In this document: piece after piece, positions 19,554-24,080 of the stretch
How positions within the stretch are numbered: the stretch's first letter is position 1
Layout of the letters: each line of letters opens with the position of its first letter
From: Lachnospiraceae bacterium
GTDB lineage: Bacteria; Bacillota; Clostridia; Lachnospirales; Lachnospiraceae
NCBI GenBank assembly: GCA_017470935.1
Contig: JAFUXG010000006.1
Coordinates: 62,001 to 126,000, forward strand
Length of the DNA stretch: 64,000 nucleotides
Reading direction: 5' to 3'
Notes under the pieces: model-generated
Databases searched by the model: none
Told to the model about the DNA's origin: nothing
What the model saw: only the letters and a program-made list of their open reading frames with translations
Translations under genes and position numbers: made by a program

Positions 19554-20253
19554 ATATATATTGGAAGTCAACAATGTAAGCAAGATAATATACACAGATA
19601 AATGCAAGAAAAGCAAAGGTGTATCTGATAAGCCACAGGGCACAAGCAGAATACTTGATAATGTATCATTTACACTGGAAAGAGGAAAGATTACTGCCAT
19701 TGTTGGGAAAAGCGGAAGCGGAAAGAGTACACTGCTTTCAATAGTCAGCGGTATTGATGCGCCTACGACGGGAAATGTAAAGCTTATTGGGGAGAATTAT
19801 TATAAGCTGTCAAAGCGAAAAAAGGCTGAATTCAGGAACAGGAATATAGGAATTCTTTTTCAGAATTATCATCTGATACCGGAGCTTACATGTGAGGAAA
19901 ATATAAGAATGCCGTTATGCTTTTCTTCAGATAGTAATGATAATCCGCGTATTGATGAATGGATGAATGCTGTGGGACTTTATGACAAGAAAAAGCTGTT
20001 TCCAAGACAATTATCGGGGGGAGAGCAGCAAAGAACGGCGATTCTTCGTGCATTGGTGAATAAACCGCAGATTCTTTTTGCCGATGAACCGACAGGAGCA
20101 TTGGATTCCAAGACCGGAAGGCAGATCATGGAATTTCTGGTTGCATATACACACAGAAGTAATATGACCATTGTTCTTGTAACGCATGATATGGAGATTG
20201 CCGGAATGTGCGACAGACAGATCGAGCTTGCGGACGGGAGCGTGGTCGGGTAG
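19546..20253 (+). CDS. ABC transporter ATPase (MacB/BceA type)
   Basis: A 235-residue ATPase energising the overlapping permease. Walker A is GKSGSGKST (54-62), the signature is LSGGEQQR, Walker B ILFADEPTGALD, and the switch histidine sits in LVTHDME. The ALDSKTG after Walker B and short length match the MacB/LolD/BceA group. An insert of about 18 residues (KCKKSKGVSDKPQGTSR) near the N-terminus is extra to the family. The last 24 codons are duplicated 2.5 kb downstream. Confidence 0.93.
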   Translation: MSEYILEVNNVSKIIYTDKCKKSKGVSDKPQGTSRILDNVSFTLERGKITAIVGKSGSGKSTLLSIVSGIDAPTTGNVKLIGENYYKLSKRKKAEFRNRNIGILFQNYHLIPELTCEENIRMPLCFSSDSNDNPRIDEWMNAVGLYDKKKLFPRQLSGGEQQRTAILRALVNKPQILFADEPTGALDSKTGRQIMEFLVAYTHRSNMTIVLVTHDMEIAGMCDRQIELADGSVVG

Positions 20254-20334
20254 TGCTTGGGAAGAAATATTTTATACTACAGCTATAATGACAAATATAT
20301 GATAAGGGGTTATGATATTAGCAGATCAAGATAA
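20179..20334 (+). repeat. Left copy of a 156-bp direct repeat
   Basis: Covers the last 25 codons of the ABC ATPase and about 80 bases after its stop. The right copy is at 22701-22856 with no insertion or deletion between them. The part after the stop codon is nearly identical (about three differences by eye) while the coding part differs at many positions. Confidence 0.85.
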
Positions 20335-20390
20335 TCAAAAATGTTTGATTATTATATTGACTTATTAGACTAATGTGTTATTATATTAGC

Positions 20391-20494
20391 TAAGGTGAGT
20401 CCTACCTTAAGTGGAAGTTGTAAAAGCGATGGAATTGCTTGAGGGTGATTCCACAAAATGTGGTTGTGCGTCTTGCATGACCACATTTATTTTA
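20391..20494 (+). ncRNA. Putative type III antitoxin RNA upstream of a ToxN-like gene
   Basis: Promoter TTGACT (20357-20362), 16-base spacer, TATTAT (20379-20384). The predicted RNA starts with TAAGGT/ACCTTA hairpin, then a GTGGAA...TTCCAC stem enclosing AGC/GCT, then the terminator at 20456. ToxI-like antitoxins occupy exactly this position, between promoter and terminator ahead of the toxin gene. I could not find clean tandem repeats, so it may be degraded or belong to a divergent class. Confidence 0.5.
20456..20494 (+). terminator. Terminator between antitoxin RNA and toxin gene
   Basis: AAATGTGGT (20456-20464) pairs exactly with ACCACATTT (20480-20488), followed by ATTTTA. Its place, 12 bases before the toxin ATG, is the usual leaky terminator position in type III toxin-antitoxin loci. 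Confidence 0.75.
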
Positions 20495-20505
20495 TGGGAG
20501 TATAT

Positions 20506-20889
20506 ATGGAACAAGAGAGACTTAATTTGTATATGGTAGATATGAAATATATTAGGAATCTACATAATATAGATGATCGTGTTTAGTCCGTTTCACCACA
20601 GATTGGAAAACAAAAAAGAATATATGTTGGTGTTGTAGTAATATGCAATGACAAAAAATATCTTATACCATTATCTCATCCGGTAGAAAAGCATAAGAAA
20701 ATGAAACCGAGAGCTGATTTTGATAAGATTATTGATAAAAAGGGTAAGCTTATTGGGGTGCTGAATTATAATCTTATGATTCCCGTTGAGGACGAGCAAC
20801 TGATTAAAGTATCGTTAAAGACTGAAAAAAGAGATTCCTCTAGTGAACATTATTACAAACAATTGTGTATAGATGAAATTAGACGGTAA
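20506..20889 (+). pseudogene. ToxN/AbiQ-like type III toxin, nonsense mutant and truncated
   Basis: The frame reads MEQERLNLYMVDMKYIRNLH, then an in-frame TAG at codon 27 (20584-20586), then continues with RIYVGVVVICNDKKYLIPLS, HPVEKHKKMKPRADFDKI and KLIGVLNYNLMIPV to a stop after 127 codons. The order of these segments (YIRNL; GVV...YLIPLSHP..KHKKM; IGVLN..NMIPV) is that of ToxN/AbiQ/CptN endoribonucleases. Intact members are about 160-175 residues, so the C-terminal helices are missing as well. Promoter, structured RNA and terminator upstream remain recognisable. Confidence 0.75.
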
Positions 20890-21035: not shown

Positions 21036-22682
21036 ATGGGTATTTGCATTCATTTATCGATATCGAAATCGGTAAAAAAAGAAGAATGGCAGAAAGTATA
21101 TGAGGAAAGTCTGAAGATGGTTAAAGCTTTTCCTCTTGCGGGAAAGAGAAAGATAAATATTGATGGAATTGATACTATCTGTCTTGTGGAGACTGAGGAA
21201 CATGAAAAAACATATGGTTGGCATAATGAAAAGACAAGAGTGGGCTGGGATGCAGTGGGCGATTATATGTATATGCGTACTGCTGAGGATTATCATCTTT
21301 CAAGGGATCTTGTAGATGACAATGAATATATTGAGAGATGTGAGGATGCAATGTTTGGAATGCTTCCGACATATCTCGATTATGACTGGGAAGATAAGCG
21401 ATTTGATATTACATATGATATTTGGGGAGCAAAAACTCAAGGAGAGCCATATCATATGTATCTGCTGGCTATAGCCTGTATGATTGAATCGAGGCTATCT
21501 AATAAGGCATTTATCTATGGTGATATAACAAGGGGACAGTGCATAAGAGCTGTTGAATTGGCTAATGAAGTATTGGATAATCCTATTGAAATACCTGCCA
21601 GATGTAATTCCGACAGATTATTTGAAAGAGTTTCTGCTATGCCATTGACAGAACCAGAGAAAATAAAAGCATTTGAATGCTTTTATCTAGGTAATAAAGA
21701 CGCAGAGTTTGGAGAGTATATAAGAAAATGCTTTTCAGATGATGCATTTATTGAATATTGGGAAAAAAGGTTCAGCTATTATAGTGTGAACCAATTTGGT
21801 TTTCGGGATATTTTCAGTGATTATATATTATGGGGATTCAATTTGTCGGATGTATGCAGATATGTGAAGTTTGAAAACAAAGATGGAAAGCTGCTCTATG
21901 AGGATTTTGTGAAATATGTAATGGATACAAAACTTCATTTATTGAATAAGGATTGTAGCGATCCTCTTAAGATTGACGAGAATGAGAGCAAACCTTACAG
22001 TGTATACACTTTATTAGCACAGTTTGCATTTATGGGTGCTAAGAATAAAAAGATTGATAGATTTATTCCTGTTGAAGAAATCAGAAAAGCACTTACAGCA
22101 AGTATTGGTGATAAATGTGATGTTAACAATATTATAGATAACTATCTGAGTAAAGAAGCAGAGCAGAAGGATATAGATTTATCAGAAATTTCAACTGAAG
22201 AGGAATATAAAAAAGCCTGTGATCAGGATTCCTCTGAAGTATTTAAACAGTATATGGATATGGAAGCGGAAAAAATTGAAAAAGCCCGTGAGGCATATGA
22301 TATTGCTGATTTTGATAATTTACTTTTTTATGAATCAGGAGATACCATAAAGCCGGTTATTTTAGAATCTTTAGGAGAATCATTTGTATTTTATAGAAGT
22401 ATTCTTGAAGAGGATACATATAAAGAGCTTATGGGAAAAGGATACATGTCTCGTTGCGGTTTTTTGGCTGATAATAATCGCTCCATTCTCATCAGAGATA
22501 AAGACTGGAGAAAAATATTCAAGGATATCAGAGAAAATGATGAGGCTTTCGCCAGATATTATCCAATGGTTAGAGTGAGTGTTACCAGTGAAAACATTGC
22601 ACATATGATTAAGGGAATTGTATTAAATGATGCGTTATACGAGTATTGTTTTGAATTGGCTCCGAAGTATGAAAAAGAATAG
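21036..22682 (+). CDS. Unrecognised 548-residue acidic protein
   Basis: A large, soluble, acidic protein beginning MGICIHLSISKSVKKEEWQK, with AAGGGAG before the ATG. I recognise it only as a hypothetical protein type seen in other gut Clostridia. Notable are aromatic and acidic stretches (GWHNEKTRVGWDAVGDYMYM; DITYDIWGAKTQGEPYHMYL), a KAFIYGDITRGQC segment and a charged helical region near residues 380-420. No signal peptide, membrane span or nucleotide motif is visible. It is the only complete gene between the two 156-bp repeats, beside a broken toxin, which suggests acquired cargo; a role in stress or defence is speculative. Confidence 0.75.
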   Translation: MGICIHLSISKSVKKEEWQKVYEESLKMVKAFPLAGKRKINIDGIDTICLVETEEHEKTYGWHNEKTRVGWDAVGDYMYMRTAEDYHLSRDLVDDNEYIERCEDAMFGMLPTYLDYDWEDKRFDITYDIWGAKTQGEPYHMYLLAIACMIESRLSNKAFIYGDITRGQCIRAVELANEVLDNPIEIPARCNSDRLFERVSAMPLTEPEKIKAFECFYLGNKDAEFGEYIRKCFSDDAFIEYWEKRFSYYSVNQFGFRDIFSDYILWGFNLSDVCRYVKFENKDGKLLYEDFVKYVMDTKLHLLNKDCSDPLKIDENESKPYSVYTLLAQFAFMGAKNKKIDRFIPVEEIRKALTASIGDKCDVNNIIDNYLSKEAEQKDIDLSEISTEEEYKKACDQDSSEVFKQYMDMEAEKIEKAREAYDIADFDNLLFYESGDTIKPVILESLGESFVFYRSILEEDTYKELMGKGYMSRCGFLADNNRSILIRDKDWRKIFKDIRENDEAFARYYPMVRVSVTSENIAHMIKGIVLNDALYEYCFELAPKYEKE

Positions 22683-22700
22683 AGTGAGATTCCTCATAAT

Positions 22701-22856
22701 GTAACGCATGATAGGGAGATTGCAGGAATATGTGACTGACAGATTGAAATTGCAGATGGGAGAGTGGTTGGGTAGTGCTTGGGAAGAAATATTTTATACT
22801 ACAGCTACAATGACAAATATATGATAAGGGGTTATGATATTGGCAGATTAAGATAA
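22701..22856 (+). repeat. Right copy of the 156-bp direct repeat (ABC gene tail remnant)
   Basis: Aligns without gaps to 20179-20334. Its coding portion still reads VTHDREIAGICD, then a stop, then QIEIADGRVVG, a decayed ABC ATPase C-terminus. There is no start codon, so it makes no protein. It ends about 20 bases before the promoter of the next RNA module. Confidence 0.85.
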
Positions 22857-22876
22857 AAAATAATTTAATAAATGTA

Positions 22877-22904
22877 TTGTATTTCGTGTCTAATTGAGTA
22901 TAAT
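22877..22904 (+). promoter_or_regulatory. Promoter of the repeat-containing RNA
   Basis: TTGTAT (22877-22882), 16-base spacer, TATAAT (22899-22904); predicted start near 22911. Confidence 0.6.
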
Positions 22905-22910
22905 ATAAGT

Positions 22911-23163
22911 AGAGCGGAGACGCCTCGATGAAAGAGCATCGTTAAAAGTTGGGCTGCAGATGGAGCAGGGTAAAATTTCCATCTCTTTAGATGTCTTGAC
23001 TGGGCATTGAGCCTGGCAGCAAGGATTAAAGCTGTAGTCCATGTGGGGGACTTAATGATTTCCACACCGTAATAGGTATCTTGACTGGGTACTGAGGCTG
23101 ACAACCAGCATAAAACTCTTTATTAAGAAATCTTTGAGGAGTGCGTTTTCGCACTCCTCTTTG
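22911..23163 (+). ncRNA. Structured RNA with two imperfect 85-nt repeats, upstream of a PBECR4-like gene
   Basis: The DNA here is GC-richer than its surroundings and has no long frame on the plus strand. TCTTGACTGGG occurs at 22994 and 23079, 85 bases apart, and the surrounding units align from GCTG (22953 and 23031) to ATTAAAG/CATAAAA. Each unit has the same hairpin in front of this core: AGATGGA/TCCATCT in the first, TGTGG/CCACA in the second. That is a compensatory change, evidence for selected RNA structure. A CGATG/CATCG hairpin starts the RNA, and a perfect terminator ends it 15 bases before a nuclease-like gene. The layout parallels type III antitoxins, but the repeat is about twice their usual length. 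Confidence 0.6.
23136..23163 (+). terminator. Perfect terminator between the repeat RNA and the nuclease-like gene
   Basis: GAGGAGTGCG (23136-23145), TTTT loop, CGCACTCCTC (23150-23159), then TTTG. It ends 15 bases before the ATG at 23178, so expression of that gene would depend on readthrough. Confidence 0.85.
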
Positions 23164-23177
23164 TGTTAGGGGTGCAT

Positions 23178-23810
23178 ATGAAAAAGAAAGATAAAAAAGA
23201 ATTAATAAGACAGGGCATCACAGATGCTGCACAAATATATAGTAATGAGCTTGCAGGTAAGTCATTTCTGTATGTATATGGAAAAGATTTTTTTGAAGTG
23301 TTTTTTCCGGTAGATCATTTTCAACATTTGACTGGAGTTGAAACAAATCTTTCTAAAAATACTTTCTACAGAAATGCAAAAAGAGGAAAATTGTCCGTTA
23401 AACAGTTTTATTTTTCTTCAAGGTATCCATATAAGAATGCAAAGAAAAAGTTGCCATGCTTGAAGAGACTACCTGAATTAACAAATAGCATGGTATGTAT
23501 TTTAAAGGATATGACAACATCAACAGTTGTTTATAAATTGAGCGTGTCTAATTTGGAATTTACACTTGGTTTGACAGAGGATTTAGATAGTAACGGTAAT
23601 AAGCTTAGTGATTGTTATTTACCTATGTCACTGAGAGTGGAAGATTCTTCGGTTGAGAAAAGTAATGATGGGGAGATAGTTGATTTCATATTTTCTAAGG
23701 ATTCAAGCGATGGAATATATAATGAATTAATGTTTAAAGATGATGAAAAAAAGGTGCCTGATTATTTGAAAGCGTTGATTAGTAGAGAGTTGTTGGAAAT
23801 TGGTATATAA
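23178..23810 (+). CDS. PBECR4-like putative nuclease
   Basis: A 210-residue protein. The segments IYSNELAGKSFLYVYGKDFF, VDHFQHLTGV, KLPCLKRLPELTNSMVCI and LPMSLRV are, from memory, the hallmark of the PBECR4 family, predicted relatives of Barnase/EndoU/ColicinE5-D/RelE-fold ribonucleases found in phages, plasmids and genomic islands of Firmicutes. H and T of HLTGV are candidate active-site residues; that is inference. The start is ATG 23178 (weak AGGGG upstream); GTG 23163 is possible. It lies directly behind a repeat-bearing RNA and terminator, as a type III toxin would. No protein antitoxin is adjacent. Confidence 0.75.
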   Translation: MKKKDKKELIRQGITDAAQIYSNELAGKSFLYVYGKDFFEVFFPVDHFQHLTGVETNLSKNTFYRNAKRGKLSVKQFYFSSRYPYKNAKKKLPCLKRLPELTNSMVCILKDMTTSTVVYKLSVSNLEFTLGLTEDLDSNGNKLSDCYLPMSLRVEDSSVEKSNDGEIVDFIFSKDSSDGIYNELMFKDDEKKVPDYLKALISRELLEIGI

Positions 23811-23982: not shown

Positions 23983-24080
23983 TATTATAGGTTTGACGAG
24001 CAGGAAAGGCACCCTGCACTCCAGTAAGTGGAACCTGATATGATGGATACGCCGCCCATCCGAATCCTATAATACTTTTT
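23983..24080 (+). ncRNA. Compact folded RNA candidate before an XRE gene
   Basis: TATTATAGG (23983-23991) pairs perfectly with CCTATAATA (24066-24074), which is followed by CTTTTTT. Inside lie at least two hairpins: GCAGG/CCTGC (about 24005-24022) and GATGG/CCATC (about 24042-24060), with a CCA/TGG stem between. A TTGACG with a 17-base spacer to TAAGTT (from 23945) is a possible promoter. A closed multibranch fold of about 92 nt ending in a U run looks like a small RNA. It shares AGTAAGTGGAAC with TTAAGTGGAAG in the RNA at 20391, too short to prove kinship. No known RNA family is recognised. Confidence 0.5.

What the first reader, a model, noticed from the sequence alone, without database searches (positions are those of the whole stretch)
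22877..23810. Candidate new RNA-antitoxin/nuclease module: tandem structured RNA repeats, terminator, PBECR4-like gene
Promoter, an approximately 250-nt non-coding stretch with two imperfect 85-nt repeats, a perfect terminator, then a predicted BECR-fold ribonuclease. The front hairpin of each repeat is kept by different base pairs (AGATGGA/TCCATCT versus TGTGG/CCACA), a covariation that argues for RNA function. This is the organisation of type III toxin-antitoxin systems, but with a toxin family and repeat length not known to me for that class. The presence of a broken ToxN locus 2 kb upstream strengthens the context.
Basis: partly seen in the sequence, partly recalled or inferred. Interest (0 to 1): 0.82.

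Follow-up and report, generated by a model that had tools for sequence, protein, structure and literature searches.

The report
RNA-guarded nuclease module with pseudoknot repeats
A small gene predicted to encode an RNA-cutting toxin is preceded by its own knotted repeat RNA, the layout of a toxin held in check by an RNA; the same pairing recurs in gut bacteria, plasmids and phages and suggests a job for a known RNA whose function was open.

Summary
Window 22899-23810 has a -10 box, a non-coding RNA with two ~85-nt units, a perfect terminator, then a PBECR4 gene (Pfam E=1.2e-29). The "front hairpin" is one stem of an H-type pseudoknot. Each unit has two pseudoknots, and the last loop pairs back to the RNA's 5' end. 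Covariation: 94 two-sided cells against 26.3±4.2 in shuffles.

The layout is general. Of 52 intact PBECR4 genes, 50 have a terminator and 43 also a good promoter (controls 9 and 1 of 34). Of 53 intact genes, 44 carry one of four RNA classes: A (window, 7), B (14), F (5), Rfam drum (18); nine have leaders I could not classify. The classes follow the PBECR4 tree (4 changes, the minimum; shuffled 29.6). One Enterococcus and one Streptococcus plasmid and two phages show the same pairing. RNAs also occur alone or beside broken PBECR4, some on phage contigs.

Best reading: a type III-like toxin-antitoxin family with a BECR-fold RNase, outside the ToxN family. Toxicity, inhibition and processing are untested. 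The papers searched do not describe it.

The parts
22877..22904 (+). promoter-like site: -35 TTGTAT 22877-22882, -10 TATAAT 22899-22904
   Evidence: 9 of 12; box kept in homologues L002, L009-L012
22926..22941 (+). 5' hairpin CGATG/CATCG of the RNA
   Evidence: sequence; aligned; not counted separately
22948..22951 (+). 5' element GTTG that pairs with the last pseudoknot loop CAAC at 23102-23105 (long-range helix)
   Evidence: GUUG/CAAC changes to GCUG/CAGC in L113 and L115
22954..22984 (+). unit 1, pseudoknot a: S1 CTGC 22954-22957 / GCAG 22965-22968; S2 AGATGGA 22958-22964 / TCCATCT 22978-22984
22990..23008 (+). unit 1 hairpin GATGTC / GGCATT
23012..23034 (+). unit 1, pseudoknot b: S1 CCT 23012-23014 / AGG 23022-23024; S2 CAGC 23017-23020 / GCTG 23031-23034, A-rich linker between
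   Evidence: six loop/element versions among 15 rows
23037..23067 (+). unit 2, pseudoknot a': S1 GTCC 23037-23040 / GGAC 23048-23051; S2 ATGTGG 23041-23046 / CCACAC 23062-23067 (outermost pair A-C not paired in the window)
23075..23093 (+). unit 2 hairpin GGTATC / GGTACT
23097..23118 (+). unit 2, pseudoknot b': S1 GCTG 23097-23100 / CAGC 23106-23109; loop CAAC 23102-23105 pairs with 5' GTTG; A-rich tail ATAAAACTC
22988..23115 (+). direct repeat found mechanically: 22988-23030 and 23073-23115, spacing 85
23136..23159 (+). Rho-independent terminator between RNA and gene
23178..23810 (+). PBECR4 gene, 210 aa, predicted BECR-fold RNase (proposed toxin); invariant H50 of the HLxG motif

Best explanation
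A type III-like toxin-antitoxin module. One promoter makes a short, abundant RNA of two tandem pseudoknotted units that stops at the terminator; occasional read-through makes the mRNA of PBECR4, a BECR-fold ribonuclease. The RNA binds and blocks the nuclease, probably after the nuclease cuts its precursor in the A-rich linkers. When transcription stops, for instance in phage infection or loss of the plasmid, the RNA decays first and the nuclease attacks cellular or phage RNA. Shown here: the layout, the pseudoknots with covariation, the RNA-protein co-phylogeny, the spread over chromosomes, plasmids and prophages, and RNAs left alone or beside broken PBECR4. Inferred: transcription, RNase activity, toxicity, binding, processing, anti-phage or addiction role.
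For: Layout: terminator in 50 of 52 intact PBECR4 genes with at least 320 nt upstream, promoter of 10+/12 in 44, both in 43; 34 other genes of the same loci give 9, 5 and 1. Class A structure: 19 of 49 pairs with two-sided change against 5.3+-1.8 on 8 rows, 94 cells against 26.3+-4.2 on 17 rows; helices kept out of the model used for aligning give 19 cells against 4.2+-1.8; each 0 of 500 shuffles. Class B: loop and partner complementary in 16 of 16 for both units, 99.7% of cells paired against 91.7, 31 two-sided cells against 8.4+-2.2. RNA classes are clades of the protein tree: 4 changes, the minimum, shuffled 29.6, 0 of 200. RNA models reach PBECR4 loci not used to build them: Erysipelothrix phage, Streptococcus phage, Enterococcus plasmid, and drum on a Streptococcus suis plasmid. 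Reverse search: a 24-nt RNA motif in viral contigs gave 10 loci, 5 with PBECR4 directly downstream. Unit number varies from 1 to 3. RNAs beside PBECR4 remnants or alone. The repeat-terminator-toxin layout is the search rule for type III systems in PMC5086642 (passages).
Against: No expression, toxicity or binding data. PBECR4 RNase activity is a prediction of Iyer et al. 2017 (passages); no structure could be predicted and no solved relative was found by sequence. Many class A and B RNAs found by the models stand without PBECR4: of the 9 class A matches that were not model rows one lies beside a PF18813 hit, which is broken (G291), and at least two more beside remnants; of the 19 class B matches that were not model rows 3 lie beside a PF18813 hit, 4 beside fragments and 12 beside none. 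One class A-like RNA precedes an Abi_2 gene instead. In one search two measures do not exceed the shuffles clearly: pairs with two-sided change 8 against 5.2 (13 of 500) and pair types 12 against 12.4 (395 of 500). Nine of 53 intact genes have leaders of no recognised class. Tree support for class B is 77/89 and for drum with L083 60/34.
Confidence: 0.78

Rival explanations
1. The leader is a cis-regulatory element (riboswitch or attenuator) that senses a signal and switches PBECR4 by anti-termination; the RNA does not touch the protein.
For: It lies between promoter and gene with a terminator at its end, and it is structured and conserved.
Against: RNAs with their own terminator persist without the gene (L111; L155-L158; phage contigs L196, L198); they exist as arrays of 1 to 3 units; four RNA classes track the protein tree, as expected if the partner is the protein. 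I saw no common anti-terminator by eye and did not search for one by program.
Confidence: 0.1
2. The RNAs are independent small RNAs, and PBECR4 merely sits behind them as cargo.
For: Of 75 RNA matches in 299 genomes, 44 lie directly upstream of a PF18813 hit; the rest do not (by my comparison of coordinates; 17 of the 44 were model rows).
Against: All but a few intact PBECR4 genes have the cassette; 23 of 30 drum matches, from a model made by others, lie directly upstream of PBECR4 on the same strand; RNA classes match protein clades; at least 8 of the remaining matches lie beside PBECR4 remnants (two of the class A ones judged by eye).
Confidence: 0.06
3. PBECR4 is not a toxin but processes or is recruited by the RNA, for example as an RNA-guided nuclease directed at phage RNA or DNA.
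For: Loci lie on plasmids, prophages and next to other defence genes; BECR proteins are predicted RNases that might target phage or host RNA (passages).
Against: The RNAs have no variable guide segment in the alignments: the most conserved parts are pseudoknot loops and linkers.
Confidence: 0.06

Closest known systems
Type III toxin-antitoxin systems ToxIN, CptIN, TenpIN
   Same: Tandem repeat RNA, then Rho-independent terminator, then RNase gene; H-type pseudoknots, A-rich loop in CptI, repeat number varies, antitoxin class follows toxin group (passages of PMC5086642).
   Different: Toxin is PBECR4 (BECR fold by Pfam and Iyer 2017), with no NCBIfam or PADLOC match, while the neighbouring ToxN fragment matches ToxN_toxin and AbiQ. 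The RNA closes on itself: the last loop pairs with the 5' end. Class A units are ~85 nt, against 34-50 nt.
AbiF / RCd22 (Abi_2 HEPN toxin with abiF RNA motifs RF03085)
   Same: Promoter, RNA with two motifs, terminator, toxin; RNA neutralises the toxin by direct contact (abstract and passages of PMC12373285).
   Different: Different toxin family. No abiF match in the window stretch, in L115 or in the Abi_2 loci scanned. Class A model: no match below E=0.27 in 28 Abi_2 loci, but one class A-like RNA precedes an Abi_2 gene in L115.
drum RNA, Rfam RF02958
   Same: It is itself the RNA upstream of one large PBECR4 clade (23 of 30 matches directly upstream; also L083 and an S. suis plasmid).
   Different: Not the window's RNA: the window and class B loci do not match it. 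I recall it as an RNA without assigned function from Weinberg 2017, a paper not held.
PBECR domains of polyvalent phage proteins (Iyer et al. 2017, PMC5512222)
   Same: Same protein family name and predicted metal-independent RNase; solo versions noted in phages and mobile elements (passages).
   Different: The passages seen name no RNA partner; the terms 'RNA antitoxin', 'type III toxin' and 'non-coding RNA' have no hit in that text.
DUF3800 RNA motifs (DUF3800-I to -XI)
   Same: Several RNA classes each tied to one protein family (recalled; only the names were seen).
   Different: Other protein family; no Rfam DUF3800 match in the loci scanned.

Membership tests
Type III toxin-antitoxin system | Tandem array of short RNA repeats upstream of the toxin gene | tested here: met
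   Window: two units, spacing 85; class B: two ~50-nt units in 16 of 16 aligned rows
Type III toxin-antitoxin system | Rho-independent terminator between repeats and toxin | tested here: met
   23136-23159; 50 of 52 intact homologues, controls 9 of 34
Type III toxin-antitoxin system | RNA folds into H-type pseudoknots | tested here: met
   Covariation of crossing helices; no chemical or 3D data
[quoted passage not shown]
   PBECR4 RNase is a prediction; invariant His in 53 of 53
Type III toxin-antitoxin system | RNA binds the toxin directly and neutralises it | not testable with these tools
   Only indirect support: co-phylogeny, RNAs without toxin
[quoted passage not shown]
   A-rich linkers could be the cutting sites; inference
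ToxN/AbiQ family (PF13958), with CptN and TenpN | Toxin belongs to the ToxN family | tested here: not met
   P0001 matches only PBECR4 in Pfam, nothing in NCBIfam or PADLOC. No fold comparison possible. The PDB search is uninformative on this, because the ToxN fragment did not find ToxN there either
drum RNA RF02958 | Match at the Rfam gathering score | tested here: not met
   Window has no drum match; the drum clade of PBECR4 does
AbiF / RCd22 system | abiF RNA motif RF03085 and Abi_2 toxin | tested here: not met
   No abiF match in the window, no Abi_2 match of P0001
Riboswitch or attenuator in cis | Leader acts only on the downstream gene; alternative anti-terminator fold | tested here: inconclusive
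   Solitary RNAs with terminators speak against it; anti-terminator not searched by program

The most novel reading that the evidence does not exclude
PBECR4 is the toxin of a large family of RNA-protein toxin-antitoxin modules with at least four RNA classes, one being Rfam's drum RNA. In classes A and B the RNA is built as a closed ring: its last pseudoknot loop pairs with its own 5' end, so one transcript carries a complete ring of antitoxin units. Phages carry solitary copies of the RNA as decoys that disarm the nuclease, in the manner of pseudo-ToxI.
Probability: 0.5. Interest if true: 0.92.

Novelty: new variant of a known kind. Interest (0 to 1): 0.84.

Why it matters
Known type III toxin families are few, and the main three share the ToxN family. 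This adds a separate RNase family with its own RNA classes, seen in 57 of 299 Lachnospiraceae-group genomes sampled and in 80 plasmid records, 76 of them Enterococcus and 56 of the 80 predicted conjugative (the RNA was read in one of these). It offers a testable function for drum RNA. Solitary RNAs on phage contigs suggest an RNA-level arms race. The covarying loop code (for example GGAG/CUCC, CAGG/CCUG, CGAG/CUCG) makes specificity swaps directly testable.

Tried and rejected
PDB search by sequence gave no relative (three ribosomal-protein matches at E 0.048-1); the ToxN control failed too, so this says nothing on kinship with ToxN.

Skipping-rope RNA (23988-24068) was considered as a second antitoxin. 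Of 17 loci read, no common downstream gene appeared: rejected. The abiF RNA family was considered for class A: no match. Coding potential of the RNA was considered: gaps of one base between homologues and higher conservation than the gene speak against it. Class F was assigned by eye; no model was built. Rows dropped: 26 of 79 PBECR4 places were left out of the tree and the layout count as short or broken; L050 was also left out of the layout count (263 nt upstream). L041 was left out of the class B alignment. L048 and L116 are in A7 although one lacks a unit and the other is partial. Labels in the tree were changed once: L083 to drum, L050 to F after (5 changes before; 4 after).

Full report
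What is there. At 22899-22904 is a -10 box, followed by a non-coding stretch, a perfect terminator at 23136-23159 and a 210-residue gene at 23178-23810 that Pfam names PBECR4 (E=1.2e-29) and PHROGs phrog_18856 (E=1.1e-30, unknown function). NCBIfam and PADLOC have no match.

Conservation. Five homologues at 62-68% protein identity carry the same RNA in the same place. Between the window and these five the RNA is 82.9-90.2% identical and the coding sequence 64.6-70.5%. Single-base gaps in the RNA argue against a coding function.

Structure of the window's RNA (class A). The two ~85-nt units each hold a pseudoknot, a hairpin and a second pseudoknot. The loop of the last pseudoknot pairs with GUUG near the 5' end. 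On 8 sequences, 96.4% of cells are paired (90.5 in shuffles), and 19 of 49 pairs change on both sides (5.3+-1.8); L051 supplies many of these. A covariance model, R1, found 12 matches in 12 of 299 genomes. With 17 rows, 94.3% of cells are paired (82.3 in shuffles), 31 pairs and 94 cells change on both sides (17.0 and 26.3 in shuffles), 0 of 500 shuffles as high. The crossing helices left out of the model, and so not favoured by the aligning, give 19 two-sided cells against 4.2+-1.8. The second stem of pseudoknot b occurs as CAGC/GCUG, CAAC/GUUG, CAUC/GAUG, CACC/GGUG and others. The long-range GUUG/CAAC becomes GCUG/CAGC in L113 and L115.

Generality. PF18813 was found in 57 of 299 genomes of the family and 4 of 398 of the phylum sample. 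Of 79 places read, 53 are intact (at least 185 aa, no stop) and 52 of these have 320 nt upstream. A terminator-like hairpin lies before 50 of 52, a promoter of at least 10 of 12 before 44, both before 43. In 34 other genes of the same loci the counts are 9, 5 and 1. The two without a detected terminator, L039 and L062, still have RNA matches: class B and a drum match below the cut-off.

Class B. Sixteen loci have two ~50-nt units, each a hairpin and an H-type pseudoknot with an A-rich linker. In 16 of 16 the loop of unit 1 is complementary to the element after its linker (GGAG/CUCC, CAGA/UCUG, CAGG/CCUG, CGGA/UCCG, CGGG/UCCG, CUGG/CCAG, CGAG/CUCG). In 16 of 16 the loop of unit 2 is complementary to an element at the 5' end (UCUG with CAGA in 11, UCCG with CGGA in 5), and a clamp such as GCUGA/UCAGC closes the RNA. 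Counts: 99.7% of cells paired against 91.7; 31 two-sided cells against 8.4+-2.2 (0 of 500). Against: two-sided pairs 8 against 5.2 (13 of 500) and pair types 12 against 12.4 (395 of 500) are not striking. Unit number is 1 in L037, L163, L164, L166 and 3 in L162.

Drum. Rfam's drum RNA (RF02958) matches the leader of many other PBECR4 genes. In 299 genomes drum has 30 matches in 26 genomes, 29 over the cut-off. By comparing coordinates, 23 of 30 lie directly upstream of a PF18813 hit on the same strand, one at a contig end, one beside a PBECR4 fragment, five beside none. L083, from another family, and a Streptococcus suis plasmid (L174) also have drum directly before PBECR4. The Rfam structure pairs the loop of a hairpin with a 3' element after a GAAAGAAAA linker, a pseudoknot like those of A and B. 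Weinberg 2017, where I recall drum was described without a function, is not held.

Class F (L057, L058, L060, L063, L050) reads by eye as two tandem pseudoknots GGUC..GACC with loop GGGAUG/CAUUCCC. Nine intact genes have leaders I could not class. So 44 of 53 intact genes have a recognised class: 18 drum (L062 and L066 at or below the cut-off), 14 B (L044 only without filters), 7 A and 5 F.

Co-phylogeny. In a maximum-likelihood tree of 53 proteins each of the four classes is one side of a branch: 4 changes, the minimum; shuffled mean 29.6, 0 of 200. Before relabelling L083 and L050 it was 5 changes against 30.1. Support: A 100/97, F 100/100, B 77/89, drum 60/34 with L083 (95/97 without).

RNA without toxin. 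Class A matches other than model rows: 9. One lies beside a broken PBECR4 (G291), two beside remnants clear by eye (L109, L113), one doubtful (L110), one alone (L111), one at a contig end (L112), one before another gene (L114), one before an Abi_2 gene (L115; Pfam E=1.4e-18), one partial (L116). Class B: 33 matches in 28 genomes; 17 beside PF18813 hits, 14 of these being model rows; of the other 16, four beside PBECR4 fragments (one in the window's own genome, L166) and 12 beside none, four of these weak or partial. No intact PBECR4 without an upstream cassette was clear, while RNAs without toxin are common: the asymmetry expected when one part is harmful alone. This is inference.

Other hosts. 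A class B protein finds 80 plasmid records, 76 Enterococcus, 56 of the 80 predicted conjugative, and two phages. The class B model, built from Lachnospiraceae only, finds the RNA directly before PBECR4 in the Erysipelothrix phage (7.9e-12), the Streptococcus phage (8.4e-12) and the one Enterococcus plasmid read (1.3e-7). Butyrivibrio pCY360 has a structured leader and terminator of another kind.

Phage contigs. A 24-nt class B motif gave 10 viral contigs. Five have PBECR4 directly downstream (E 9.6e-29 to 7.3e-51); five (two alike) have none in the 0.8-4.6 kb held. All ten match the class B model, and in the four different solitary ones loops and clamps stay complementary by eye. Neighbours are phage genes in three of four (endolysin and holin; homing endonuclease and thymidylate kinase; PHROGs of unknown function); the two L197 proteins tested had no match. 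These may be decoy antitoxins, as phage PhiTE makes a pseudo-ToxI (PMC3475682, listing; PMC5086642, passages).

Literature. 'PBECR4' is in no paper of the library. 'PBECR' is in two relevant ones: Iyer 2017, which predicts the RNase and names no RNA partner in the passages seen, and a C. difficile survey naming PBECR3. Searches on type III systems with BECR or new families list none with this pairing. No preprints are held, and most subscription papers are missing.

Verdict. It works like a type III system by every feature sequence can show. It is not a member of the ToxN family, and the biochemical features that define type III were not testable here.

Noticed in passing
window 20357-20889: Decayed ToxIN-like locus: promoter-like site 20357-20384, terminator-like hairpin 20456-20488, then a ToxN open fragment 20701-20889 (ToxN_toxin E=2e-9; AbiQ 2.5e-5).
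   Followed up: partly
window 20177-20358 and 22699-22878: A 182-nt direct duplication (86.8% identical) of the 3' end of an ABC ATPase gene and what follows; it brackets the ToxN remnant and a 548-aa gene, so the modules may have arrived at one insertion spot.
   Followed up: partly
window 23988-24068: Skipping-rope RNA RF02924 (46.5 bits) with its own terminator, before an HTH gene; 17 loci elsewhere share no downstream gene.
   Followed up: yes
window 21036-22682: A 548-aa gene without convincing match in Pfam, NCBIfam or PADLOC, between the ToxN remnant and the module.
   Followed up: no
L166 (G000:C32:81633-81703, minus strand): The window's own genome holds a second, one-unit class B RNA beside a C-terminal PBECR4 fragment (E=2.3e-9).
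   Followed up: yes
L115 3075-3239, minus strand: A class A-like RNA (37.4 bits) directly before an Abi_2 (HEPN) gene: possible toxin exchange behind one RNA.
   Followed up: partly
L196, L197, L198, L202/L204 (IMG/VR contigs): Solitary class B RNAs on phage contigs without PBECR4 nearby: candidate decoy antitoxins.
   Followed up: partly
L171 2170-2300: Two-unit class B RNA before PBECR4 on Enterococcus saigonensis plasmid pVE80-1, beside an integrase and an IS3 transposase.
   Followed up: partly
L086 2780-2985: Butyrivibrio proteoclasticus pCY360: PBECR4 behind a structured leader with terminator of a class not recognised here.
   Followed up: no
L048 (G291): Class A RNA that has lost one unit, apparently by recombination between units, beside a broken PBECR4.
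   Followed up: partly
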